Shown here piece after piece: positions 7,018 to 57,084 of a stretch of DNA of 60,634 nucleotides. The first letter of the stretch is position 1; each line of letters starts with the position of its first letter. This DNA is from Candidatus Kapaibacterium sp. (GTDB taxonomy: Bacteria > Bacteroidota > Ignavibacteria > Kapaibacteriales > UBA2268), in contig JAPLFL010000112.1 in NCBI GenBank assembly GCA_026390695.1, positions 1-60,634 of the forward strand, read 5' to 3'. Made by a program: the position numbers and the translations under genes. Below the pieces are notes generated by a model, which saw nothing but the letters and a program-made list of their open reading frames with translations, ran no database searches and was not told the DNA's origin.

Positions 7018-7199
7018 ATCCCCCTAACCCCCTTTTTCAAAGGGGGGACAAGAATGGAGAACGTGGATTACGGATTTTTCCCCCTTTGCAAAAGGGGGAT
7101 TGAGGGGGATTTTCTTCATTTCCCCCTTTGCAAAAGGGGGATTGAGGGGGATTTTCTTCATTTCCCCCTTTGTAAAAGGGGGATTGAGGGGGATTTTCC
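7018..7199. repeat. G/C-rich palindrome with a 42-bp tandem triplication
   Basis: A hairpin at 7018-7048 (CCCCCTAACCCCC / GGGGGG) is followed by three tandem units whose CCCCC runs begin at 7080, 7122 and 7164, exactly 42 bp apart. Each unit is itself a hairpin (CCCCCTTTGC and GCAAAAGGGGG). The array lies just beyond the end of batE and may help terminate the bat transcript. Confidence 0.85.
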
Positions 7200-26467: not shown

Positions 26468-29400
26468 TTATAATTCATTTTTGTCTGAACTTTTAGGTGT
26501 ATAAAAATCAGGATTATATAAACGTGTCTCTTTAACAATTTCTTTTAATTCATTTATCTTCTTTTTTATTTGCCCATTATTGATCTTAAATCTTTCAGTT
26601 GCGATTGCAAAATGATAAACTCTATCATCCAAATCATCATTTAAGAAATATAGTTTTTCTATAAAATTATAGTATTCAAGCCCTTCCGTATGAGTTTCAA
26701 TTGTCATGTGATAATGTTGAATTGCTCGTTCGTAGTGATAGTACTCTGTCAATGAATTATCATCATCTATTTCGCAAAGTTGTTTCAGTTTATCAATCAG
26801 ATCATTTTTAATGTCCAATTCAATCGAGGTGTCATTATTTTCTTTTATCCACTTTTCAATTTCAACAATAACAATCTTATTAATTTCAAAAAAATCAAAT
26901 AAATACTTCCTTTCGTCTCCTTTTAAAAATATTAGCGCTAAAATTATTTGTATATTAATTTCTAACTCATTGTTCCTATTGGTCAAATAAACTTCGGCTG
27001 ATTTTAAACATTTATTATAATCATTAATTATTTTTGTATTACCTCTAAAGCCAATTGTTATTTTATAATCCAAATATAATTTCACTGAATTATAAATCAT
27101 AAGCCAATCGGCCAATTTTTCATGTGCCCATGCTATAAAACTGTGGTTTATAAGATAGGTAAAACCATAAAGATTTGTTAATTTTATTAATTCTTGAAGA
27201 CAAAAAATAGAATCTGTAATTAAGTGAAATATAAATTCTCTTCCAGTAAATACTATTTCTTCGGATTTTCTTTTAGCTGAATCCAAAAATATAAACTCTT
27301 TTGATTCTAAGTTCTTGAATAATTTGTAAATCAATCTTTCGTATATTCTTTCTTCTGATTTTTCAGTATCATCAAAACAACTTATTAAAGTAACTAATAA
27401 TTTAAAATTTAACTTTGCTTTATATTTCAATGACAGTATGCGATTAAACATACTATCCATTTCGTTAAATGGGGAGACTATGTTCAATTTATATTCATTA
27501 ATTAGAGTTTTCATTAGGTCTAATTTATTTTGAACTTTAGATTTCATCTTGAGCGTAAGGTCCCGATAAATATATACAACTTCATCAATTTCAACTAAAG
27601 AAATACTTCTCAAGTCTATATCGTTGATAGCATCACTTTCTTTTAATAAAATTCCTTTTATTTTTTCTATCTCAATTCTATGAACATTTTGATAAGCACT
27701 ATACAAACCTGAAATAACTTTAGACGCAACAGACCTAATCGATTTTATGAGCGCTTCATTATTTTCAAAAGAGTTGTCAAAATCTACTAAATCTCTAATA
27801 AAATATAAAATTTTTCTGTTTTGATGAGCATATTCTTTGTAATCATTAGACTTTTTAAAAAATACAGCAGATAACCAATAAAGAAGTAAAATGGCCCTAG
27901 ATTTATCATATATATTTTTCCCATTTTTTACTACTTTTTCACTTATAATTTTATATTTATTGTTATCGTGTTCACTATTTGATGGTTCATCTTGAAATAA
28001 TGCTATTAACAGATCCTTGAATGAATTTATTTCTTTAATAAGTTCTTTTTTAACCTGATCGTTAATTTCATTTGTATTTATATCTTTAAAATCTACTAAA
28101 CAATTTAAAAATACATCTCCTATATTAGATAAATTTATTGCCAAAGATCGATAATTATAAACGTTGAAGTCCTCAAAAGACTTTTCGCTTAAAGTATTTA
28201 ATAAACTATATAATATTTCATTTATTCCAACGATGTCGCTATTAACATTCGGTTTATTTTTTCCTTTCTTATCTTTTATGTCCTTTCTAATTCTGATAAA
28301 TTTATCTAATAATATTCTTAAAGTTTTGTGGTAAAAGAAGCAAGCAGTACAAGGGGCGTTTGAACCTTGTTTTTTGATTATCTCACGTGTTTTATCACAA
28401 TAAGTTTCTTCGTTATTTGTATCTACAAAACAAGTTGAGCAGAATACATTTTGATTGGGTTGTTGGCAAAAGTAATTACATTTATTACTACATTGAATTT
28501 TACTTTTATTGTACTTTTTATCACTTAAATTCTTCTTTTCGTGGCATCCTGATTTAATAATTTTCGAAATATCCAAACTCCCGTTTTTAAAATAAAGAAT
28601 ATCCCCTACCTTTGACCAAAAATCGCATTCTATATAGAATTTTTCACTTGTATTAAAGACTTTTGTAAGATATAAAAATTCCTGATAAACAGTATTCAGA
28701 TTATGAGCCGTAATACCGCCCATATTTGGTTTTTCTAAAATCATTAATTTAGCTAGAAATGGCTGATATACATGGCTAATTGAAGCAAATAACGTTGCTT
28801 TTGAAATAACTTTAGCTTTCTCAGGTGATAATTGGTTAATTAACTTTTTAACTAACTCTTTTTCATTATCATTATCCCATTTATCCATTTCAGATGCAGG
28901 TGCAATATTTTTAACGAAATTAACTTCTTTTTCTTTTTCTCTATTTGCAACTACCTTGCTTTCACCATCCTCAAATATTTCCTTCAAGCCTAATTCAGGA
29001 AGATCAATATATCTGAATTCAATAATTTTTTGGGCAATTTCGGAATAAGTTTTCAGCGCACTCGGATAATTTTTCCTTTTTTCATTTGCAATTCCGAGTT
29101 TTAGCATATTTCTTATAAAAGTCAACATCCTCGCTGATTCAAATTTATTTACTTTTTTATTTCGTAAGCCATAAACAGATGCCTTATAGAAGTTGATTGC
29201 CTCCTGATACTCTTCCTCATAAAAATAAATATCACCTAAAATCATTTTTAAAGCATGAATATTATTATTAGTATCTTCGATTTGGTTATTTTCATTTCTT
29301 TTATTATCACTATTAATTTCTATCCTAAGTCTTTTATCATAATAATTCTTTACTGCAAGCGATTCATCAAGAGTAAAATTAAAAATTGCTCCTGCATCTT

Positions 29401-32400
29401 CTTTAACTCTTGATAACATTGAAATTTCCTGCGAAATCATTCTCGGAAATTTGTATGTATGTAATCCGGTATTAACCCTTTGTAAATGAGTTTTTGTAAG
29501 AAAATGAAGAATTGTTCCGATAAAATCTCGTAATTCAGTTGTCTTGTTTATATCAAGAAGTTCAGGTGTAGTCTCAATATTATTCCATGAGAAAGAGCTC
29601 TTATGGAATTTGAAAATATGGTCGATAAGAAAGGAAGCTGAAACAAGCAGTTTGTCACCATACTCGACCAAATTATTATTTATTTCAAGTATTATCGGAT
29701 ACGCCAGATAATTTACCATTCCTATAGAATATTGAGAAAAATAATCAAAGCCCAAATAAAATTCAGAAGTAATGTTTTTATCAAGATTTACAAATTGATT
29801 ATCGAATGAGGTTAAACTTTCAGAGAATTCTTTGCTTTCTATGAATTTTTCAAAGAATATTGTTGTTTTCTTTGGAGAGCCGTTACTAATATGAGTTAAA
29901 TACACAATGAAGTGTTGCAATGTCATAATTATTTTTTCTCGCTTTTTTCTGAGTATTTCATTTTGAATAAACTTTTCTTTTGATTGATCTTCATCATTTA
30001 GTTTATGAGATTCAAAATTATCAATTATATATTTATTGTAATTTCTAAGATTTGGTTCAAACCCATCTTTTCGTTGTTCCTTTTCCTGTTCTATGTACCA
30101 CGAAGGAAAAAGATAGTTACAAACATACCTTTCGGTCATTTTCGTTATATCTTTTGATTTCTGATATTTAAAATTGTCTGTGTTATTTCTTTCTTTCTTG
30201 TCGTTTATCAAATTATCATTAAAAAAGCTATCAACATAAATAACATCATTGAAAATATTTCCAATATAAAAGTTTCTATCCGATACATCAGCAAGATACG
30301 CATCATAAAGCTCTCGCCCGGCAATAAAAATGAATTTGGCTTTGGCTGTAGTTAAAAAATATTTCAAATTACTTAATAATTGTAAAATTGCTTGCTGTCG
30401 TTCACGTGTTCTTTCTGGAGAAAACAAAGTCGTTGTACGTGTATTATAAGTAATTTCTTGCTCATCTATTTCTTTTGCAGGTTCAATTTTATCTAATTCA
30501 TCAAATATAAAGATGAATTGTGGCCTGAATGTCATTCGAGGATGTTGGTGCATCTCATCAAGAAAATTAATTAGTTCTCGTTCAATAAAACGCTCATCCG
30601 CTTGAGGATAATGTTTGCTTTTTGAAATTTTCATTCCAAAGAATTTTCCATAGTTTTTTCCTACACCAGCATCAAAGCCACTTGAGTAACTGATCTGAGC
30701 ATCTATCATCTCATTTATTCTTTTTAAATCCCTGAATAATAAGAAATTCGATTTGAATTTTAAAAAATTTATCCTTTTTAATAATGAAAAACCTATAATT
30801 GAATTTATAATAAAAATTAATCCGAAATAGTCGATACGATAAGGTATGATATTAGAGTGTATTACGCTAATGATACCTGACCTGATTGGTAATGGATTTA
30901 AACATTCAAAAATATGAATAAAAAGTCCTTCACTTATAATAGGTCTTATTCTTTTATATAAGTTATAAACAATAAAATCAATATTTGAGCTATATGACAT
31001 TAAAAATTTTTGCCATTTTGATAATTTGGAATAGTAAATTAAGGATTTGAAAAATATATTTACATCTAATATCTTTAGACTTTGGTTATCTTTTAATTTC
31101 TCAGGAAGATTTATTTTAAACTCGCTAAATAAATTTAGATATAATATCTCTTCTCTGCAAATATTGCCCTTTAAAAAACCTGAATTCGATTTAATACTTG
31201 ATCCACTACTGTTCTTTATCCAAGCGATTGTGTTTTTATTTGAATCATTAGCTCGTGTATGGGAAAGTATATGAGTTCCAATGAAATTATTTTTATTGAA
31301 AACCATTATTGAATCATTAAGTAAATTTGCTTTGAATAAACTATCGGGAGTAATTTGACCACTCTTTTTAAAACAAACAATTGTATCTATAACTATCTTA
31401 TTTGCAGTTCCTGCAACTTTTTTTCTTACATAAAATAAGGTATCTCTCTGAAAGGAACTTGTTGTATCCTTTTGGCTTTCTTCAATTTCGAATAATAAAC
31501 TATCATATTTGATTTTCTTTTCAACAAACTTTAATCCACAGTCAATTAAAGAGTAAAAATTGCTATCGAGTAATAGCATATTAATTGTATTCAATTTGTA
31601 ATCAATATAGGAATTTTCGATAAACGAAGTGAAAAGTGGTAAATTATTTCTATTATGAATAGATTCAAGACAATTATTAATACTTTCAAATCTACAAGAT
31701 TCTTTAGAATCCTCAATAAAAAATGAGCCTTGTGAAGGAAAATAAAAATAGAAATCTGACAATTGTTTTATTGCATAACTTGCCCTATAAATCGAATTAA
31801 AATAGAAAAAATATGAGAAAAATGAGATACCAAATACTGTTGAATAGACTAATGGAAAAAATACTATTCTAAAGCTCCTGTGCCAATCTCGATATTTTGT
31901 TAATAATCCGCTTGAGATCAATTTTAAAACATCAATTTCTTTTAAGTTGTCATAGCTCAGGTTTATTTTAATGTAAATTGTTCTAACATTGTGCAAAAAT
32001 TTTTTTGTAGAGTCAAAAATCGAAAATTTATTATTATCTGGATTTTTTAATAGGTATTTCCAAACAAAATATATAAAAAATAACAGAAGCGTTATTGAAA
32101 TTATACTCATCTGCCGCTGATACCATATTAAAGCTACTGAATAACTATAGAAATTTACTAAATAATTAACTGATACCAAAAAAAATGAAAATTTTATATT
32201 TTTTGTTAAATGTTTGGCAGTTTGGAAATAATCATTAAAAATTGATAAAACAAAAATTTTAAAATTCTTTTTTTGCCTGTAAGTCTTAACAGTTAAATTA
32301 TTAATTTCTAAATGCTTTTTCCTAAATTTATATAAAATATATGAAACATAGATTATTGGGAAAACAAAAATAGTGTTAGTGTTAGTGTTCATTAAAATTA

Positions 32401-32983
32401 TTGATAAGATAATACCAATTATCGATATACCTATTTGTCGTAATTCAATTTCGTATTTTCTAAGTACCTCTGATTGATTATTTGAATTAGTACTTTTTTG
32501 AAAGATCGTGGATGCCTCACTACTTGTGAAGGGGCTCTTCGTTTCGTTCCCTTTTTTGTTAATTTTATAAAAAATTCGAATTATATAAATTGGAAATATT
32601 ATCACCAGAAGTTTATTAGAATAATTATTAAATAACATAAAACTGATTATTGACAAAATAACCGTAAAAAATACTAATTGCAAGAACTTCATAGGAAACT
32701 TCAGAGGCACATGTGCTTTGCTTATCTCACTAATCGTCTTAGCTACAAAGCTGGTTTTGCCCATACCACGGAAACCACTAACTAAATATGCACCGGATAT
32801 TGTTGCTCCGCCAGTCAATATCGCTTTTAATCGTTCAATTATTTTCCTTCTTCCTATGAAACGATCATCAATATCGCTTAAATCCGAAGGGCCATGGAAA
32901 AATTTAAATCCATAAAGTGGAATATAAACTTTTTTGATTCTTGACGAAAAATCGTCTAATGTACTTTGTTCTTTTTCTTCCAC
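26468..32983 (-). CDS. Giant KAP/STAND-like P-loop NTPase with membrane insert and TPR-like C-terminus
   Basis: This 2171-aa protein starts at a GTG preceded by GGAGAAAAA. Residues 40-52 (DRFIGRRKIIERL) and 70-78 (GFRGMGKTS, Walker A) begin an AAA+/KAP-type domain. Walker B (FIFIFDELDKIE) appears only near residue 825, so about 740 residues are inserted, with several membrane segments (about 95-135, 185-220, 255-310, 360-395, 660-740) and a probable extracytoplasmic region near 400-640. Insertion of membrane helices between the Walker motifs is the hallmark of KAP NTPases, but the insert here is exceptionally large. Residues 920-1200 look like the ATPase lid. A TPR-like segment follows (DIYFYEEEYQEAINFYKASV). 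Residues 1475-1550 hold a Cys-rich putative zinc cluster (CSNKCNYFC, FCSTCF, APCTACFF), then about 600 helical residues. It may be a membrane-anchored defence or signalling NTPase. Confidence 0.75.
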   Translation of the reverse strand: MEEKEQSTLDDFSSRIKKVYIPLYGFKFFHGPSDLSDIDDRFIGRRKIIERLKAILTGGATISGAYLVSGFRGMGKTSFVAKTISEISKAHVPLKFPMKFLQLVFFTVILSIISFMLFNNYSNKLLVIIFPIYIIRIFYKINKKGNETKSPFTSSEASTIFQKSTNSNNQSEVLRKYEIELRQIGISIIGIILSIILMNTNTNTIFVFPIIYVSYILYKFRKKHLEINNLTVKTYRQKKNFKIFVLSIFNDYFQTAKHLTKNIKFSFFLVSVNYLVNFYSYSVALIWYQRQMSIISITLLLFFIYFVWKYLLKNPDNNKFSIFDSTKKFLHNVRTIYIKINLSYDNLKEIDVLKLISSGLLTKYRDWHRSFRIVFFPLVYSTVFGISFFSYFFYFNSIYRASYAIKQLSDFYFYFPSQGSFFIEDSKESCRFESINNCLESIHNRNNLPLFTSFIENSYIDYKLNTINMLLLDSNFYSLIDCGLKFVEKKIKYDSLLFEIEESQKDTTSSFQRDTLFYVRKKVAGTANKIVIDTIVCFKKSGQITPDSLFKANLLNDSIMVFNKNNFIGTHILSHTRANDSNKNTIAWIKNSSGSSIKSNSGFLKGNICREEILYLNLFSEFKINLPEKLKDNQSLKILDVNIFFKSLIYYSKLSKWQKFLMSYSSNIDFIVYNLYKRIRPIISEGLFIHIFECLNPLPIRSGIISVIHSNIIPYRIDYFGLIFIINSIIGFSLLKRINFLKFKSNFLLFRDLKRINEMIDAQISYSSGFDAGVGKNYGKFFGMKISKSKHYPQADERFIERELINFLDEMHQHPRMTFRPQFIFIFDELDKIEPAKEIDEQEITYNTRTTTLFSPERTRERQQAILQLLSNLKYFLTTAKAKFIFIAGRELYDAYLADVSDRNFYIGNIFNDVIYVDSFFNDNLINDKKERNNTDNFKYQKSKDITKMTERYVCNYLFPSWYIEQEKEQRKDGFEPNLRNYNKYIIDNFESHKLNDEDQSKEKFIQNEILRKKREKIIMTLQHFIVYLTHISNGSPKKTTIFFEKFIESKEFSESLTSFDNQFVNLDKNITSEFYLGFDYFSQYSIGMVNYLAYPIILEINNNLVEYGDKLLVSASFLIDHIFKFHKSSFSWNNIETTPELLDINKTTELRDFIGTILHFLTKTHLQRVNTGLHTYKFPRMISQEISMLSRVKEDAGAIFNFTLDESLAVKNYYDKRLRIEINSDNKRNENNQIEDTNNNIHALKMILGDIYFYEEEYQEAINFYKASVYGLRNKKVNKFESARMLTFIRNMLKLGIANEKRKNYPSALKTYSEIAQKIIEFRYIDLPELGLKEIFEDGESKVVANREKEKEVNFVKNIAPASEMDKWDNDNEKELVKKLINQLSPEKAKVISKATLFASISHVYQPFLAKLMILEKPNMGGITAHNLNTVYQEFLYLTKVFNTSEKFYIECDFWSKVGDILYFKNGSLDISKIIKSGCHEKKNLSDKKYNKSKIQCSNKCNYFCQQPNQNVFCSTCFVDTNNEETYCDKTREIIKKQGSNAPCTACFFYHKTLRILLDKFIRIRKDIKDKKGKNKPNVNSDIVGINEILYSLLNTLSEKSFEDFNVYNYRSLAINLSNIGDVFLNCLVDFKDINTNEINDQVKKELIKEINSFKDLLIALFQDEPSNSEHDNNKYKIISEKVVKNGKNIYDKSRAILLLYWLSAVFFKKSNDYKEYAHQNRKILYFIRDLVDFDNSFENNEALIKSIRSVASKVISGLYSAYQNVHRIEIEKIKGILLKESDAINDIDLRSISLVEIDEVVYIYRDLTLKMKSKVQNKLDLMKTLINEYKLNIVSPFNEMDSMFNRILSLKYKAKLNFKLLVTLISCFDDTEKSEERIYERLIYKLFKNLESKEFIFLDSAKRKSEEIVFTGREFIFHLITDSIFCLQELIKLTNLYGFTYLINHSFIAWAHEKLADWLMIYNSVKLYLDYKITIGFRGNTKIINDYNKCLKSAEVYLTNRNNELEINIQIILALIFLKGDERKYLFDFFEINKIVIVEIEKWIKENNDTSIELDIKNDLIDKLKQLCEIDDDNSLTEYYHYERAIQHYHMTIETHTEGLEYYNFIEKLYFLNDDLDDRVYHFAIATERFKINNGQIKKKINELKEIVKETRLYNPDFYTPKSSDKNEL

Positions 32984-38045: not shown

Positions 38046-38846
38046 TTAATTCTCATCAAGATTTATAATGGAGTTACAAAAGTAAGATCCATGGATCCTG
38101 CACCATTTTGAATTTAATTTCCAAGCTTTGTTAAATTTGAATTTATTATTATACGATAAATCGACTTCTTCCCATAACATAGTTTCATTTGAACAATCAC
38201 AGGATAATCTTACTAAGTTATTAGTGATTTTCTCATAAAACCTATCAGACACTATTAATTCCATTGGCTCGCATAATGTACATAATTTAGCGGCAGCATT
38301 GATTGTTTGACCAGCCCAAATTTCATTCTGCCGATCTGTTCTTCCTCCAATTCTCTTGAGACCGACTTTTTTAACAAATACTGTTTTTCTATCAATCCCA
38401 ATATGAGCACCAATAACATCATCTTTGGATTGAATTGTTTCTTCAAAATATTCCTCAGAGAATGTTTTGAAAGTGATTGCCGATGCAATTGCATGATATG
38501 GTTGATTTTGATTATATAGTGCAAATACGCCATCACCTCTAACGTCAATATACTTTGCATCAAATTCATGAAACAATTTTACTGCTGTACCGGTAAATAA
38601 TTCATATATTTTTGCCATTGAAGGTAAATATTTTTCATTACTTAATTTAGTGGAATTTCTCATATCGACATAGACACAAATAATATCTTTTATTTTAAGC
38701 CACTTTTTTGAATTATTGGCGATTAAGGGAATATCACTTGTATCAGGTATATAATTCAACTCCTCAGTAATTATTGTCTCATAATAGTTATTAATTTGAT
38801 CCTCAATTATTGACTGAAACTTTTCTGGAATTTGTGTTTTATACAT
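38046..38846 (-). CDS. pycC: Pycsar-type nucleotidyl cyclase (PycC-like)
   Basis: The 266-aa soluble protein has one class III cyclase domain. The first metal-binding motif is IICVYVDMRNSTKLS (Asp near 61), the second YIDVRGDGVFALY (Asp near 105), and the nucleotide-binding side shows GGRTDRQNEIWAGQTINAAAKL. A short Cys-containing tail ends the protein. PycC enzymes of Pycsar defence make cCMP or cUMP on phage infection. Assignment to Pycsar, not a generic guanylate cyclase, rests on the adjacent PycTM-like effector. The start follows AAAGG. An IS30 copy now separates the two genes, and may supply or remove the promoter. Confidence 0.78.
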   Translation of the reverse strand: MYKTQIPEKFQSIIEDQINNYYETIITEELNYIPDTSDIPLIANNSKKWLKIKDIICVYVDMRNSTKLSNEKYLPSMAKIYELFTGTAVKLFHEFDAKYIDVRGDGVFALYNQNQPYHAIASAITFKTFSEEYFEETIQSKDDVIGAHIGIDRKTVFVKKVGLKRIGGRTDRQNEIWAGQTINAAAKLCTLCEPMELIVSDRFYEKITNNLVRLSCDCSNETMLWEEVDLSYNNKFKFNKAWKLNSKWCRIHGSYFCNSIINLDEN

Positions 38847-38881
38847 GTCATACCTTTAAAAATTGTGAATAATGTTGGTGA

Positions 38882-39962
38882 CTAGAATCTAACGCAACAC
38901 TTTTGGCTTTTTAGCCAAAGATGCTAGGGTTGGATTCTATGTCAAAATTATATAAAAGATTAAGTGATAATGAAAGGGAAGAAATCAGCCGTTTGCTGGT
39001 TCAGAAATATTCTTTTCGGGAAATAGCCAGACAGTTGAATAGAAATGTCAGTACCATTAGTCGTGAGGTTAGCGCCGGAGGCGCTAACAAATATGTTTAC
39101 CGAGCTGTCAGAGCACAGAATAGAGCTAGAAGAAATGCGGCTAAAAGAAAAAAGGGTAAACGACTAATTGATAACAATTTGAGGTTAAAACGGTACATCT
39201 ACAAAAAGCTAAGAAAACGGTGGTCACCTAAACAGATTGCAAAAGAATTGGAAACGGATTATCCTCTGGATATGACTATGCGAATATCATCAGATACAAT
39301 TTACAGCTACCTCTATGTTTTGCCCAAAGGAGCTCTTAAAAAGGAATTACTGGCCTGTTTAAGACGTAATCATCAGCACCGCTACAAATACGCTAAAGGG
39401 ACTAGAAATGTGCGTAAAATAGAGGATATGCTCAGCATCGAAGAACGACCGAAAGAAGTGGAAAACAGAATAATACCGGGGCACTGGGAAGGCGATCTAG
39501 TGATGGGCAAGTACAATCGTTCTCAGTTGGGCACATTGGTTGAACGCACCACGAGAACAACTATACTCGTCCCGCTAAAAAGCAAACGGTCGGAAGAGGT
39601 AGTTAAATCTTTTGCTAAAGAAGCTAAAAAATTACCAAAGCAGATGAAGCTATCAATGACCTATGACCAAGGACGAGAAATGGCGGCACATAAATTATTT
39701 ACCAAAGAAACAGAAATGAAAGTATATTTTGCTCATCCGAGAAGTCCTTGGGAACGAGGTACTAATGAAAATACCAACGGTTTAATCAGACAATTTTTTC
39801 CCAAAGGGACAGACTTTAACAAAGTAAGCCGTACAGAAATCAAGAAAGTTCAAGACCTGTTAAATGGACGGCCAAGAGCTACTCTGAATTACCGAAAACC
39901 TTATCAAGTTTTTAATGAATTAATTAACACCCGATAGCTAACGCCGTTGCGTTAGATTCTAG
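38882..39962. mobile_element. IS30-family insertion sequence
   Basis: The 1081-bp element has perfect 17-bp terminal inverted repeats: CTAGAATCTAACGCAAC at 38882-38898 and its complement at 39946-39962. It contains one intact transposase gene. No clear target duplication is seen in the flanks (...GTTGGTGA and GGACTACC...). It cuts the 3' end of the PycTM-like gene, and the stop codon of that gene's present frame lies inside the right inverted repeat. Confidence 0.92.
38921..39937 (+). CDS. IS30-family transposase
   Basis: The 338-aa transposase has an N-terminal helix-turn-helix (LSDNEREEISRLLVQKYSFR, then EIARQLNRNVSTISREV). The DDE catalytic triad is complete: Asp192 in GHWEGDLVMGKYN, Asp249 in SMTYDQGREMA and Glu283 in SPWERGTNENTNGLIRQFFP. 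Length is normal and the frame is intact, so the element may be active. A second possible start is ATG at 38939. Confidence 0.95.
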   Translation: MLGLDSMSKLYKRLSDNEREEISRLLVQKYSFREIARQLNRNVSTISREVSAGGANKYVYRAVRAQNRARRNAAKRKKGKRLIDNNLRLKRYIYKKLRKRWSPKQIAKELETDYPLDMTMRISSDTIYSYLYVLPKGALKKELLACLRRNHQHRYKYAKGTRNVRKIEDMLSIEERPKEVENRIIPGHWEGDLVMGKYNRSQLGTLVERTTRTTILVPLKSKRSEEVVKSFAKEAKKLPKQMKLSMTYDQGREMAAHKLFTKETEMKVYFAHPRSPWERGTNENTNGLIRQFFPKGTDFNKVSRTEIKKVQDLLNGRPRATLNYRKPYQVFNELINTR

Positions 39963-40489
39963 GGACTACCAATGTTTATAGTAATTAAAATTATAATTGA
40001 AATAAGTGTAAATAAAATCGAAATGTTGAAGCATTTAAATTTTTTTAATGTGATCCGTGAATTATTTGAAATCTGGTTTATAAGATCATGGATATAAGGC
40101 GAAAATTTTTCGTTATCAATTTCCAATTTATTCAGCAAAATTCGATGATACTCATTATATTTTTTATTAGATGCAATTAAAGCAAGATCTTTAAAATAAA
40201 TACTATTCATTTTTTCGTCTAATTCAGTATTTTTTGATATTCTAAAATTAGTAATCTTCGGTATGAAAGCTATTAAACTTGAAAGAATTGATAATCCAAG
40301 GATAATAATCGAAATTTTATAAAAACAGAGAAACCAGCAAGGCAAAAGACAAAATTGGTTTTCAAATAATTTAAATAATCCAAATATCAAAGCACTATTG
40401 AAACTGATTATTACTCCATTTTTTGTCTCAGCAAATTTTAACAAGTCATTAACGATTGTTAGAATATATTTTAATTCTGTAAGTACCAC
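39959..40489 (-). CDS. Pycsar membrane effector (PycTM-like), 3' end cut by IS30
   Basis: This 176-aa protein has membrane segments at about 24-42, 51-76 and 154-172. The N-terminal FAETKNGVIISFNSALIFG and the following SIYFKDLALIASNKKYNEY match the PycTM effector pattern (a helix with F-A-D/E-T-K before the first membrane segment, then a cytosolic part). PycTM proteins disrupt the inner membrane when cyclic pyrimidine nucleotides are made. The stop TAG comes from the IS30 right end. Without the insertion the frame would run only some 8-14 codons further, into the sequence just before pycC, so only the extreme C-terminus is altered and the protein may still work. Confidence 0.72.
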   Translation of the reverse strand: MVLTELKYILTIVNDLLKFAETKNGVIISFNSALIFGLFKLFENQFCLLPCWFLCFYKISIIILGLSILSSLIAFIPKITNFRISKNTELDEKMNSIYFKDLALIASNKKYNEYHRILLNKLEIDNEKFSPYIHDLINQISNNSRITLKKFKCFNISILFTLISIIILITINIGSP

Positions 40490-44163: not shown

Positions 44164-44394
44164 TTAGTAAATATTCTTTTTAAACCAATTCTCAAATTCA
44201 TTCAAATTTCTCAATTCAATTCTTTTGAAATTAGACAATTGACTATTTCCATTATAATTGGAATCATTATCCTCAATAATTACCATTCCGCCTTTTTTTA
44301 TGGTTTCCCTCATGCTCTTTTTTATTTTCATAACCGCTTTCAGATTTGTTCGAACATTGTTCTGCAAATCTGACTTTTCTGCAATTAATTCCAT
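44164..44394 (-). CDS. Hypothetical 76-aa protein, likely under the HTH regulator
   Basis: A strong AGGAGAG precedes the ATG, so the gene is likely real. The product is charged and soluble, with KAVMKIKKSMRETIKKGGMV and a C-terminal LNEFENWFKKNIY; it is not recognised. Upstream on its own strand lie the hairpin at 44548 and the paired palindromes at 44608-44655, so the repressor encoded at 45680 probably controls it. An antirepressor or Cro-like role would fit the layout but no HTH is seen. Confidence 0.5.
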   Translation of the reverse strand: MELIAEKSDLQNNVRTNLKAVMKIKKSMRETIKKGGMVIIEDNDSNYNGNSQLSNFKRIELRNLNEFENWFKKNIY

Positions 44395-44547
44395 TTTCTC
44401 TCCTCTTAAAAAATTATACTGATTTACATTTTTTTCACCTTTCTATACAATAAATAAAAATTAAACTCGTTTGTATCCCTGAATAAATTCCCTTTATTCT
44501 TCAGCGCCCGCTGAGTGGAAAGAAAGAGTTTATTTAGTCGAATGACG

Positions 44548-44593
44548 ACGCCGGTACTCAACAAGTCGCAAACTCAGATAGCCGGCGTTTTTT
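44548..44593 (+). ncRNA. Hairpin with conserved ACTCAACAAGTCGCA loop and T-run, copy 1
   Basis: The stem ACGCCGG (44548-44554) / CCGGCGT (44582-44588) encloses a 27-nt loop that contains ACTCAACAAGTCGCA (44556-44570), and a run of six T follows. The same loop sits in a compensatory-changed stem at 57038-57079. It is not behind any plus-strand gene, so it may be the 3' end of a small RNA or a terminator within an untranslated transcript. Confidence 0.6.
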
Positions 44594-44607: not shown

Positions 44608-44655
44608 TATACGTTCCGCGTATAATCTCTCCCAAATTTATACGTGCCACGTATG
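44608..44655. promoter_or_regulatory. Paired operator-like palindromes (pair 1)
   Basis: TATACG-TTCCG-CGTATA at 44608-44624 and TATACG-TGCCA-CGTATG at 44639-44655, centres 31 bp apart (about three helical turns). The same arrangement with the same spacing lies in front of the HTH gene at 45601. They are probably binding sites of that regulator, controlling leftward transcription to the 76-aa gene. Confidence 0.75.
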
Positions 44656-45600
44656 TAAGTGTTTTAATATCAATGAACTAAAGAAACCAAAGCAAATTTA
44701 GTGTTTCTATAAATACAATGCAAATCTTTTTTTCAAATACTTAATATTTTCTTCTTTTTTACATCAGCCTCTGTTTTAAAAGGTTGAGAAATGGCTCTGA
44801 GCCTGTGTTAATGAATTCGCAAAAAATAATTAATTTTGTCCTTGAAAAATAAATAATTGAACTGTATATAAAATACTGGAAGTGATTACTATTATAGATC
44901 ACTCCGATCTCCTGATCTGGTCAGCTTTTTAAGAAAGCATATACATTAATTTTAATTAAAATAATTTTCCAAATACGTAAATATATTTCTTGATATTTCT
45001 CTATAAGTGGCATTCATGGCTATGTTGTGAATCTCGATTTCTTATTATTGTTCAAAATTTATTTCGCTGTCTTTCAAAAATAAGCAATGGAATTCTGCAC
45101 TAACTGCGATTCAGAGCCATTATCTTAATAATTGAGTTAATTGATAGCTTCATGCCAAGCCGCTACTCTATGTTATTAATTATGGACTGACGAGTAAATT
45201 GTCTAATAGCATATTATATGGCTATCAGAGCTACTCTAAAAGTTGATAAAATTTGATTGATTGAGGGGATATAATCTTTGAATCTGCAAGGTGGCAGTTA
45301 GTGCGACTTTTAAGCAATTGAGGCTAATTGTTGAGGCTAACTTTTTAAAGTACAGCCAAAAACTCTGTTGCTTTATGGCTATAGCTGCTATTTATAGTGA
45401 ATTCTAAAATATTTGAGTTCTCGACTACTAAGTAATTTTTCTTTCTAACATTCGATGAATACTGGATTTTATCTGATCTTCAAATACTAATTTCCAACTT
45501 TTTTTCAAAAAAGAAAAAATTATTTGGTTATTAATTAAATAAACCATAATTTGCATTTGGTTTAATTGTATGATTTTTGAAATAGTTATGAGGATTTTTT
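44656..45600. other. Gene-free kilobase between the two operator pairs
   Basis: No coding frame with domain or ribosome binding site is visible in either direction. The sequence is AT-rich with scattered short repeats such as GAGCCATTATC-type and TGGCTAT words, none forming a clear array. It may contain the leftward promoter and untranslated RNA. Confidence 0.4.
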
Positions 45601-45648
45601 TATACGTACTACGTATAAAATAACTAAAAATTATACGTGCGGCGTATA
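45601..45648. promoter_or_regulatory. Paired operator-like palindromes (pair 2) upstream of the HTH gene
   Basis: TATACG-TACTA-CGTATA (45601-45617) and TATACG-TGCGG-CGTATA (45632-45648), both perfect 6-5-6 dyads with centres 31 bp apart. They end 31 bp before the preferred start of the HTH gene, so autoregulation is likely. Confidence 0.82.
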
Positions 45649-45679
45649 ATTATTTTTATTGATTCTTTGAGGAATGCTT

Positions 45680-46315
45680 ATGGATAAGTCAAAAAGATTG
45701 ATAAAATTTTTGATTACTTTAGATAAGGATCAAGCTGCTTTGTCTAGTATTCTTGATGTCAGACAAGCAAGTGTAAGCAGATACTTAACCGGGAAAATGA
45801 AGCCAAAGTATGAAACACTTTTTAAACTTCATGATTTAGGATTAAGCTTAGACTGGCTGGCAACTGGTACTGGGAGCATGTTTGCACTTAATGAAGAAGG
45901 AAAAAAACTAAGAGATGTTGATGTGGCAAAATCAGCAGTCAGTACTAATGTCAACATTAAACCTTTTGATAGATTTAAAATCTGGATCGACAATAATTAT
46001 GAATCGTTAGATAAGTTCGCTCTAATTATGAATATCAAATATGATTATATTTATAATGTGCTTTATAAGGACATTATTGAACCGGAATTGTTCAAGATAG
46101 TGGAAAATGCCGGATGTAGTATTCTCTGGATATTGAATGGAGAGGGTTCACAATATGCCGATAATTTTATGGGCAAATCATTACAAATTAGAAATGGTTT
46201 AATTGTTGAAGATGATTCCTTCTTTAATGAGGATGTAAAAAATGCAAGCAATGAAGAAATTGTAAAAGTTTTTAAATTAAATTTTTCAAACAAAAAACAA
46301 GGGAATGGAACATGA
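45680..46315 (+). CDS. Repressor with two CI-like HTH domains
   Basis: I prefer the ATG at 45680, since TGAGGA (45668-45673) is seven bases away from it but touches the ATG at 45674. The 211-aa protein has two similar DNA-binding domains. The first (about 8-70) has LDKDQAALSSILDVRQASVS and ends WLATGTGSMF; the second (about 98-160) has WIDNNYESLDKFALIMNIKY and ends LWILNGEGSQY. The W-L-x-x-G-x-G ending is typical of Bacteroidota CI/Cro-type phage regulators. There is no peptidase domain. The gene overlaps the TPR gene by ATGA and is preceded by paired palindromes, which suits a double-headed or dimeric repressor. Confidence 0.78.
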   Translation: MDKSKRLIKFLITLDKDQAALSSILDVRQASVSRYLTGKMKPKYETLFKLHDLGLSLDWLATGTGSMFALNEEGKKLRDVDVAKSAVSTNVNIKPFDRFKIWIDNNYESLDKFALIMNIKYDYIYNVLYKDIIEPELFKIVENAGCSILWILNGEGSQYADNFMGKSLQIRNGLIVEDDSFFNEDVKNASNEEIVKVFKLNFSNKKQGNGT

Positions 46316-47944: not shown

Positions 47945-48199
47945 ATGGATTACCCAAGCAATTTTATTTACAATTCAGATGATAAAACTCTATCATGGGA
48001 TGCCTGCTATGAAGGCGATAGCTACGAAATACGTTATTCAATTAATGTGCCTCAACCCGTTTGGCATATAATTTATAATGGACCAGACACATCTTGTTCT
48101 TTTGATGTTGGATCTGGTTCTTTTGTGGCTTCTGGGAGAAGAACAACAAAACCCGGTCTTCCCGTCTGGAGCCCACCGGAAGTAGTAGTTGTTTCATAA
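47945..48199 (+). CDS. Small beta-sandwich (fibronectin-like) protein
   Basis: AAGGA lies seven bases before the ATG. The 84-aa product shows the core of a fibronectin type III-like fold: NSDDKTLSWDACYEGDSYEI, RYSINVPQPVWHIIYNGP and SCSFDVGSGSFVASG. There is no signal peptide. It is 34 bp after the TPR gene and probably in the same transcript. Function unknown. Confidence 0.6.
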   Translation: MDYPSNFIYNSDDKTLSWDACYEGDSYEIRYSINVPQPVWHIIYNGPDTSCSFDVGSGSFVASGRRTTKPGLPVWSPPEVVVVS

Positions 48200-48238: not shown

Positions 48239-48269
48239 AGTTTGCGACTTGTTGAGTAGCTGCGTCGTT
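48239..48269 (-). repeat. Partial inverted copy of the ACTCAACAAGTCGCA element
   Basis: On the minus strand, 20 nt (TACTCAACAAGTCGCAAACT) are identical to 44555-44574, and the adjacent GACGC is shared too, but the second stem half is missing. With copy 1 it forms an inverted pair around the repressor/TPR operon. On the plus strand it lies 40 bp after the last gene, so the mRNA 3' region would be complementary to the loop of copy 1. Confidence 0.85.
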
Positions 48270-56902: not shown

Positions 56903-57037
56903 AATTTTACCCTAAATTATATGAGTGAATTTTAATAATCAACAGAGCGAAATTATGACTTGGCGCTGGTGCAAATAGGATTCTTTTATCTTTATCTCTT
57001 TGGAATGAGTAAAAAATTGGCTTTATTTAGTCAAATT

Positions 57038-57084
57038 ACACCGGCACTCAACAAGTCGCATTTCTCTGACAGCCGGTGTTTTTA
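57038..57084 (+). ncRNA. Hairpin with conserved ACTCAACAAGTCGCA loop and T-run, copy 2
   Basis: The stem ACACCGG (57038-57044) / CCGGTGT (57073-57079) has an A-T pair where copy 1 has G-C, a compensatory change that supports a folded RNA. The loop contains ACTCAACAAGTCGCA (57046-57060), and TTTTT follows. The TTTATTTAGTC upstream of the stem is also shared with copy 1. Confidence 0.62.

What the first reader, a model, noticed from the sequence alone, without database searches (positions are those of the whole stretch)
45601..46315. Double-headed CI-like repressor with paired, equally spaced palindromic operators
Four copies of TATACG-N5-CGTATA (one with a single mismatch) occur as two pairs, 44608-44655 and 45601-45648. 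In each pair the centres are exactly 31 bp apart, about three helical turns, while the central 5 bp vary. The adjacent regulator carries two similar CI-like HTH domains in one chain, each ending in a W-[LI]-x-x-G-x-G motif. The simplest model is that one protein, or a dimer, binds both palindromes on the same DNA face and loops the 1-kb gap between the pairs. It would control itself and the leftward 76-aa gene, like a phage genetic switch without a peptidase domain.
Basis: partly seen in the sequence, partly recalled or inferred. Interest (0 to 1): 0.82.

Follow-up and report, generated by a model that had tools for sequence, protein, structure and literature searches.

The report
Membrane-linked repressor with twin operators
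A bacterial gene switch in a little-studied lineage: a repressor built from a duplicated phage-repressor-like domain sits beside paired DNA sites that probably control its own genes and a small neighbour, and it travels with a membrane protein that may tell it when to let go.

Summary
Four TATACG-N5-CGTATA dyads (one with a mismatch) form two pairs, each 31 bp centre to centre; all three exact copies in the 4.63-Mb genome are here. The regulator is a true internal duplication of one HTH unit (profile-profile P 2e-20). Relatives support the operator reading: of 16 full-length copies in 11 of 54 family genomes, 6 have matching paired sites and 6 a single palindrome at their own promoter, and several have a second site nearby; four lack a convincing own-promoter site.

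The second domain is acidic or neutral and matches no HTH family in Pfam, so I expect a domain-1 dimer on each palindrome, with domain 2 for pairing or signal input, not two DNA-binding heads. Looping is untested. A phage switch is not indicated: 16 of 16 copies precede a TPR-membrane protein gene and 13 have an FN3-like small gene. In two related genera the site also precedes T9SS-type secreted proteins and a hybrid kinase. Best model: an autoregulated, probably membrane-signalled CI-like repressor with a small regulon. Binding, signal and contact with the TPR protein are inferred. New variant of a known kind.

The parts
44608..44624 (.). Operator-like dyad 1 of the distal pair, exact
44639..44655 (.). 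Operator-like dyad 2 of the distal pair, one mismatch, 31 bp from dyad 1
45601..45617 (.). Operator-like dyad 1 of the regulator's own pair, exact; palindrome extends to TTTTATACGTACTACGTATAAAA (0 of 200 shuffles of the 160-bp upstream region score as high)
45632..45648 (.). Operator-like dyad 2 of the regulator's own pair, exact, 31 bp from dyad 1 (2 of 200 shuffles score as high)
45680..46315 (+). Regulator, 211 aa (ORF opens at 45674): domain 1 (about residues 1-72) CI/434-like HTH, domain 2 (about 93-172) a degenerate copy, then a predicted C-terminal helix
46312..47910 (+). TPR protein, 532 aa; ORF overlaps the regulator's stop by 4 nt; hydrophobic N-terminus, TPR region, one hydrophobic segment (both read by eye) and a short tail without a kinase domain
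47945..48199 (+). 84-aa FN3-like beta-sandwich protein, no signal peptide seen by eye; third gene of the operon
44164..44394 (-). 76-aa protein of unknown function, presumed target of the distal pair; its only relative in 54 family genomes lies beside the paralogous regulator
44656..45600 (.). 945-bp stretch between the two pairs; no ORF of 50 aa or more and no Rfam match at gathering threshold

Best explanation
The protein is an autoregulated transcriptional repressor. Domain 1 binds each 17-bp palindrome as a dimer. Two dimers sit side by side on each pair, about three helical turns apart, and shut off the operon regulator / TPR-membrane protein / FN3-like protein on one side and the 76-aa gene on the other. 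Domain 2 is a duplicated HTH unit that has lost its DNA surface and now serves dimer-dimer contact or signal reception. The neighbouring TPR protein, with TPRs presumed outside the cytoplasm and a short cytoplasmic tail, is the likely signal input that releases or modulates the repressor. In related genera the same kind of repressor also governs a small dispersed regulon that includes T9SS-secreted proteins. Shown here: the sites, their restriction to these loci in this genome, the domain duplication, the conserved operon, conservation of sites against their flanks in three pairs of relatives, and a partial agreement of site with domain-1 helix. Inferred: binding, repression rather than activation, co-transcription, the role of domain 2, membrane topology, and contact between TPR tail and regulator.
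For: Dyads exact only here in the genome and above chance. 16 full-length copies in 11 of 54 family genomes; 16 of 16 are followed by the TPR gene and 13 of 16 have the FN3-like gene. Matching paired sites at the own promoter in 6 of 16: window (31 bp), L045 (33), L049, L050 and L059 (50), L055 (51). Single palindromes at L047, L048, L051, L053, L052 and L058 (0-5 of 200 shuffles). Footprint: site identity 24/26, 22/22 and 50/50 between relatives, against 0.67, 0.67 and 0.82 outside. A second site or pair in the locus for L043, L045, L047, L048, L051, L053 and the window, plus a two-mismatch one for L054. Whole-genome counts at up to one mismatch, regulator sites included, against the backwards control: TTTACATATATGTAAA 8, 8 and 3 against 0, 1 and 1 in G020, G035 and G044; TTRCGGGCWGACCGTAA 3, 4 and 2 against 0 in G045, G051 and G023. 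Helix/site agreement: LNRIIN with TTTACATATATGTAAA-type sites in L047, L048, L051, L053; SLNDY with TTRCGG in L049, L050, L052; SLNLY with TTGAATC (L059); ALNRY with TTGAACC (L055). Domain 1 matches 186 CI (2fjr, E 4.2e-7).
Against: L046 and L054 show no convincing site at their own promoter although their helices (LNRIIH, LNRIIN) predict one; L043 has only a half-site there. L044 and L045, with other helices, also have TTACAT-like half-sites, which weakens the helix rule. L044's site is weak (8 of 200) and L058's is an uncorroborated single palindrome. By palindrome score alone L049, L050 and L059 are unremarkable; there the evidence is repetition. The pair scan also lists pairs that look like chance in 5 other loci, none of them a tandem pair at the own promoter. 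G050 has 0 TTTACA sites (control 2), G018 1 (control 1), G004 0 (control 0); G037 has none of the second pattern. G023 holds two sites but no full-length regulator at E 1e-15, so a related regulator may use the same site. Helix/site agreement partly follows phylogeny. The distal pair lies 214 bp from the 76-aa start, far for a classical operator. A phage family profile (phrog_8, E 8.9e-14) aligns over residues 4-197, domain 2 included. Outside the 16, L057's domain 2 is basic. Nothing shows the TPR tail touching the regulator.
Confidence: 0.7

Rival explanations
1. One reading: one chain (or dimer) uses both HTH domains to hold both palindromes of a pair and loops the 1-kb gap between pairs.
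For: Two homologous HTH units in one chain; equal 31-bp spacing in both pairs; a two-site layout recurs in relatives at about 0.25 and 3 kb, which would suit looping.
Against: Domain 2 is neutral or acidic in its helix 2-3 segment and alone matches no HTH family in Pfam (4 of 4 copies); its best phage-family matches are weak. Relatives with the same two-domain protein have a single palindrome at their own promoter (L047, L048, L051, L053) or 50-51-bp spacing (L049, L050, L055, L059), so the two domains are not matched to two palindromes.
Confidence: 0.12
2. The dyads are operators of some other regulator (or activator sites) and their position beside this gene is incidental.
For: No binding data; G023 has two such sites without a full-length relative of this regulator at E 1e-15.
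Against: Sites recur beside the same regulator in several genera with changing sequence that partly tracks domain 1's helix. In G000 the exact dyads occur nowhere else. The paralogue's different pair is also beside it: 2 of 3 genome matches.
Confidence: 0.08
3. The dyads act as RNA hairpins or terminators, not protein sites.
For: They are inverted repeats in an AT-rich tract with T runs nearby. No folding was computed.
Against: The own pair sits just upstream of a start codon, and the arms are nearly identical across four copies while the loop varies. Some relatives use repeated imperfect dyads (L045, L049) that would make poor hairpins.
Confidence: 0.04
4. Remnant of a prophage immunity region.
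For: Domain 1 resembles phage repressors, and the PHROGs phage family phrog_8 aligns over residues 4-197 (E 8.9e-14), so the two-domain layout itself may occur in phages.
Against: No relative in viral contigs by tblastn (close relatives only); conserved operon with TPR and FN3-like genes across the 11 genomes; sites before secreted proteins in relatives.
Confidence: 0.06

Closest known systems
Coliphage 186 CI repressor (PDB 2fjr; Pfam PF07022 Phage_CI_repr)
   Same: Best PDB sequence match of the family profile, positions 18-78, E 4.2e-7. Domain 1 passes Pfam's cut-off (26.2 against 22 bits). Multiple operators (recalled).
   Different: No Phage_CI_C domain reported; instead a second, degenerate copy of the HTH unit. 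Chromosomal operon with TPR and FN3-like genes.
P22 c2 / 434 repressors
   Same: Fold of domain 1 (P22 c2, 2r1j: Z 8.0, rmsd 1.8, 64 residues aligned); palindromic operators in tandem (recalled).
   Different: Those repressors carry a peptidase-type C-terminal domain (recalled), not a second HTH unit. Z near 8 is middling by that call's own note.
PHROGs family phrog_8 (phage transcriptional regulators)
   Same: Profile aligns over residues 4-197, E 8.9e-14, so phage relatives with a similar long layout may exist.
   Different: Domain 2 alone matches it only at E 0.011; members were not inspected.
FimS- and SusR-type TPR membrane regulators (NCBIfam NF053520, NF058541)
   Same: The TPR part of the second gene matches both models (E 8.4e-18 and 4.3e-7, far below their cut-offs).
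   Different: No kinase or DNA-binding domain reported in the TPR protein; regulation would pass to a separate repressor.
Wmk of Wolbachia (double-HTH protein)
   Same: Two HTH domains in one chain (search listing of PMC12889037, plus recall).
   Different: Different lineage and context; no tandem-operator locus known to me.
BlaR1/BlaI-type membrane receptor and repressor pairs (recalled)
   Same: Membrane sensor encoded with a cytoplasmic dimeric repressor that controls its own operon.
   Different: Unrelated folds; no protease domain in the TPR protein by Pfam.

Membership tests
Phage_CI_repr HTH domain family (PF07022) | Domain match at curated cut-off | tested here: met
   26.2 bits against 22, residues 16-68; paralogue L043 35.6 bits. 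Relatives L047, L049 and L058 fall below the cut-off.
186 CI-type full-length repressor | C-terminal oligomerisation domain Phage_CI_C | tested here: not met
   Pfam reported no such domain up to E 1; the C-terminal part is a second HTH-like unit.
Lambda/LexA-type repressor | Autocleaving S24 peptidase domain | tested here: not met
   No peptidase match in Pfam or NCBIfam.
Temperate-phage genetic switch | Carried by a phage or prophage | tested here: inconclusive
   No relative in viral contigs with the window protein, but that scan finds close relatives only; phrog_8 and phrog_4 match; neighbours do not look phage-like by eye.
Temperate-phage genetic switch | Tandem palindromic operators shared by the repressor promoter and a second promoter | tested here: inconclusive
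   Two pairs in the window and second sites in L045, L047, L048, L051 and L053, but no promoter was mapped.
Protein with two DNA-binding heads | Both HTH units able to bind DNA | tested here: inconclusive
   Domain 2 is less basic and lacks a Pfam HTH match; weak phage-family matches remain; binding itself cannot be tested here.
Sensor histidine kinase (FimS type), for the TPR gene | HATPase_c kinase domain | tested here: not met
   No kinase domain in Pfam up to E 1; the NCBIfam FimS match has its best stretch in the TPR region (residues 201-312) and is far below cut-off.
FN3 fold, for the third gene | FN3 beta-sandwich | tested here: met
   AlphaFold2 model pLDDT 90.5, seven strands; the 50 Foldseek PDB rows shown are mostly FN3 or receptor domains of that kind (probability up to 1.00, best E 4.1e-3, none below 0.001). 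No Pfam match by sequence.

The most novel reading that the evidence does not exclude
A so far undescribed transmembrane signalling class: a kinase-less TPR membrane receptor passes an outside signal by direct contact to the HTH-derived second domain of a CI-like repressor, which thereby leaves tandem operators on its own operon and on genes for T9SS-exported surface proteins, with the FN3-like small protein as ligand or adaptor. The second domain would be an HTH turned into a receiver.
Probability: 0.35. Interest if true: 0.75.

Novelty: new variant of a known kind. Interest (0 to 1): 0.5.

Why it matters
If true, it shows a phage-type repressor put to use in a bacterial cell by duplicating its HTH unit and wiring the copy to a membrane protein, in a lineage (Ignavibacteria/Bacteroidetes-type metagenome genomes) with little known regulation. 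Many of the operators are short, near-exact and linked to the gene, so regulator-site pairs can be read from sequence across paralogues, which makes rules linking recognition helix and half-site directly testable.

Tried and rejected
Motif-agnostic chance test on the window: only suggestive (5 of 100 shuffles). Generic palindrome scoring of own promoters: 8 of the 16 family regulators are among the 15 best of 98 upstream regions; the other 8 are not, nor are L056 and L057. Search for a conserved RNA in the 945-bp gap: no Rfam match and no nucleotide similarity to the paralogue's region there (part that ran before the script stopped). The hairpin-like repeat at 44529-44592 was first suspected as part of the system; it is a dispersed element and was set aside. 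One search (viral contigs) found no relative. Structure comparison of the whole regulator gave no match below E 0.001; VIA-align rows cover almost only residues 1-71, so domain 2's fold has not been compared on its own. Six further genomes of the family have only partial or weaker matches at E 1e-15 (17 of 54 have any); those spanning both domains (G006:C57, G010:C311, G039:C25) were not examined for operon or sites. L056 and L057 (another family) have the two-domain protein without the TPR gene and were left out of the 16. The name DUF3892 for the small ~90-aa genes of L045, L051, L053 and L054 was my recall and is not confirmed (first 70 of 86 letters of the L053 protein; whole protein in NCBIfam and PHROGs). 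Paper searches gave search listings only; no paper was opened.

Full report
What is there. The window belongs to a 4.63-Mb genome in 129 contigs. Named relatives that carry the regulator are Ignavibacteria/Bacteroidetes-type metagenome genomes such as Ignavibacteria bacterium RIFOXYC2_FULL_35_21 and FW215_bin.12. The four dyads are at 44608, 44639, 45601 and 45632, in two pairs with centres exactly 31 bp apart. At up to one mismatch, 100 shuffles of the window give a mean of 0.04. In the whole genome the exact dyad occurs three times, all here; one-mismatch places elsewhere are no more than the control predicts, and 4 of those 5 are inside long ORFs. All four sites read TATACG-T-N-C-N-R-CGTATA or one change from it, so the centre is not free. 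A test that allows any arm sequence is milder (5 of 100 shuffles).

The regulator. The ORF is 45674-46315; a GAGGA motif favours the ATG at 45680. Domain 1 passes the Pfam cut-off for Phage_CI_repr and HTH_3, and the family profile finds 186 CI first in the PDB (2fjr, E 4.2e-7, positions 18-78). Domains 1 and 2 of the family align end to end (99% probability, P 2e-20). The AlphaFold2 model (mean pLDDT 82, pTM 0.45) shows six helices twice over and a C-terminal helix; the mutual placement of domains is uncertain. Domain 2's helix 2-3 segment has a net charge of 0 to -6 in the 16 family copies and is lower than domain 1's in each. For whole domains, domain 2 is negative in 14 of 16 and zero in 2 (L058, L059), and domain 1 is the more positive in 15 of 16, L043 being the exception; outside the 16, L056 agrees and L057 does not. 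Domain 2 alone has no HTH match in Pfam in 4 of 4 copies tested; in PHROGs its best matches are at E 0.004-0.006 in three copies, with a weak HTH family at 0.049 in one. Against this, the phage family phrog_8 aligns over residues 4-197 of the whole protein (E 8.9e-14). I take domain 2 as a former HTH, not a second DNA-binding head.

The operon. In all 16 full-length copies found in 11 of 54 genomes of the family, the next gene downstream is a TPR protein of 457-544 aa. By eye it has a hydrophobic N-terminus, one hydrophobic segment near the C-terminus and a short tail. The tail reminds me of a histidine-kinase DHp hairpin without a conserved histidine, a reading that was not tested. The TPR part matches the FimS and SusR models far below their cut-offs. 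In 13 of 16 a small FN3-like gene is found (84-94 aa in the 11 with a clean ORF; in L051 it appears in two frames). It is predicted as a confident sandwich of seven strands (pLDDT 90.5) though no Pfam model matches it. L054, L055 and L058 had none by tblastn. In the window the regulator and TPR ORFs overlap by 4 nt.

Sites in relatives. Paired sites at the own promoter: window; L049 and L050 (TTGCGGGCTGACCGTAA twice, 50 bp); L055 (TTGAACCACTGGTTCA twice, 51 bp); L059 (TTGAATCCTAGATTCAA and TTGAATCCTCAATTCAA, 50 bp); and L045 (two pairs of GTTTACATTTGAGCTACTT-type repeats at 33 bp, the second pair inverted just before a divergent small gene, the two forming 58-nt inverted arms, 84% complementary). 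The same scan lists chance-like pairs in 5 other loci. Single palindromes: L047, L048, L051, L053, L052, L058 (0-5 of 200 shuffles); L044 is weak (8 of 200). L046 and L054 have none convincing at their own promoter; L054 has a two-mismatch TTTACA-type site about 2.4 kb downstream, before a small gene that resembles by eye the one with a site in L051 and L053. The paralogue L043 has no site at its own start beyond a half-site, but a pair TATGCAGTAACGCATA / TATGCTTGAAACGCATA about 30 bp apart on the side of its divergent small genes (0 of 300 shuffles give such a pair, with test settings chosen after seeing it). 2 of 3 genome matches to that pattern are this pair.

Conservation and specificity. 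In three pairs of related loci the sites are kept (24/26, 22/22, 50/50) while the rest of the 150 bp is 0.67, 0.67 and 0.82 identical. Copies with the domain-1 helix LNRIIN (L047, L048, L051, L053) have TTTACATATATGTAAA-type sites; SLNDY (L049, L050, L052) TTRCGG; SLNLY (L059) TTGAATC; ALNRY (L055) TTGAACC. L049 and L059 are paralogues in one genome (G045) with different helices and different sites. Exceptions: L046 and L054 share the LNRII helix without such a site at their own promoter, and L044 and L045 have TTACAT-like half-sites with other helices. Part of the agreement is phylogeny.

Regulon. The TTTACATATATGTAAA site at up to one mismatch occurs 8, 8 and 3 times in G020, G035 and G044 against 0, 1 and 1 for the backwards control, but not above control in G050 (0 against 2), G018 (1 against 1) and G004 (0 against 0). 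TTRCGGGCWGACCGTAA occurs 3, 4 and 2 times in G045, G051 and G023 and 0 in G037, control 0. Besides the regulators, some of these sites precede small genes, a PAS hybrid kinase (L122, 73 bp) and large proteins; for the two sites near the contig end in L047/L118 no target could be named, and the sites on G035:C60, G035:C84 and G018:C10 were not looked at. Of six large non-kinase proteins scanned, L119 (G020), L124 and L125 (both G023) pass a Por_Secre_tail cut-off, L123 (G045) is just below, and L048 (1214 aa) and L120 (1197 aa) have no such match. G023 has no full-length regulator at E 1e-15, so its two sites do not speak for this regulator directly. For the window's own genome only the two pairs are known.

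The leftward gene. The 76-aa protein has one relative, 40% identical, in the 54 family genomes and none in the 24 further order genomes; it lies beside the paralogous regulator in the same genome. So the unit small gene / regulator / TPR / FN3-like seems to have been duplicated as a whole.

Mechanism and doubts. I favour domain-1 dimers on each palindrome, autorepression, and control of a second unit. Single-palindrome relatives and 50-bp pairs argue against a design in which two heads hold two palindromes. Looping over 1 kb cannot be judged here. The role of the TPR protein as signal input rests on operon conservation and topology read by eye.

Known and new. The DNA-binding part and the tandem operators are of a well-known kind. 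The duplication with a degenerate second unit, the constant pairing with a kinase-less TPR membrane protein and the FN3-like third gene were not met in six paper searches (listings of 0 or 1 paper each, none opened), which is a thin basis. I rate it a new variant of a known kind.

Noticed in passing
window 38046-40489: Pycsar anti-phage pair: cyclase PycC (38046-38846, E 4.8e-108) and membrane effector PycTM (39959-40489; Pfam PF18967 above cut-off), both on the minus strand, with a transposase gene (HTH_38 + rve, 38921-39937, plus strand) lying between them.
   Followed up: partly
window 44529-44592, 48239-48268, 57022-57083: Dispersed element around ACTCAACAAGTCGCA, in two of these copies inside a CCGG...CCGG stem followed by a T run (by eye); 4 exact and 2 one-mismatch copies in the genome, 3 of the exact ones in this window.
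   Followed up: partly
window 7077-7198: 42-bp tandem repeat, 2.9 copies, each unit with a CCCCCTTTGCAAAAGGGGG dyad.
   Followed up: no
window 26468-32983: 2171-aa protein with a weak AAA_16 match (below cut-off) and several hydrophobic stretches by eye; no PADLOC match at E 0.01.
   Followed up: no
L056 7649-8278; L057 9022-9786 and the next ORF: Two-domain relatives of the regulator in another family of the order, without the TPR operon, next to a gene that looks by eye like a sigma-54-dependent activator; L057 appears to carry two in tandem.
   Followed up: no
L048 10588-10914; L119 5489-5813; L118 408-734: Operator-like sites 309-311 bp apart recur in three places in two genomes, before large secreted-type genes in L048 and L119, a second and longer fixed spacing that is unexplained.
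   Followed up: no
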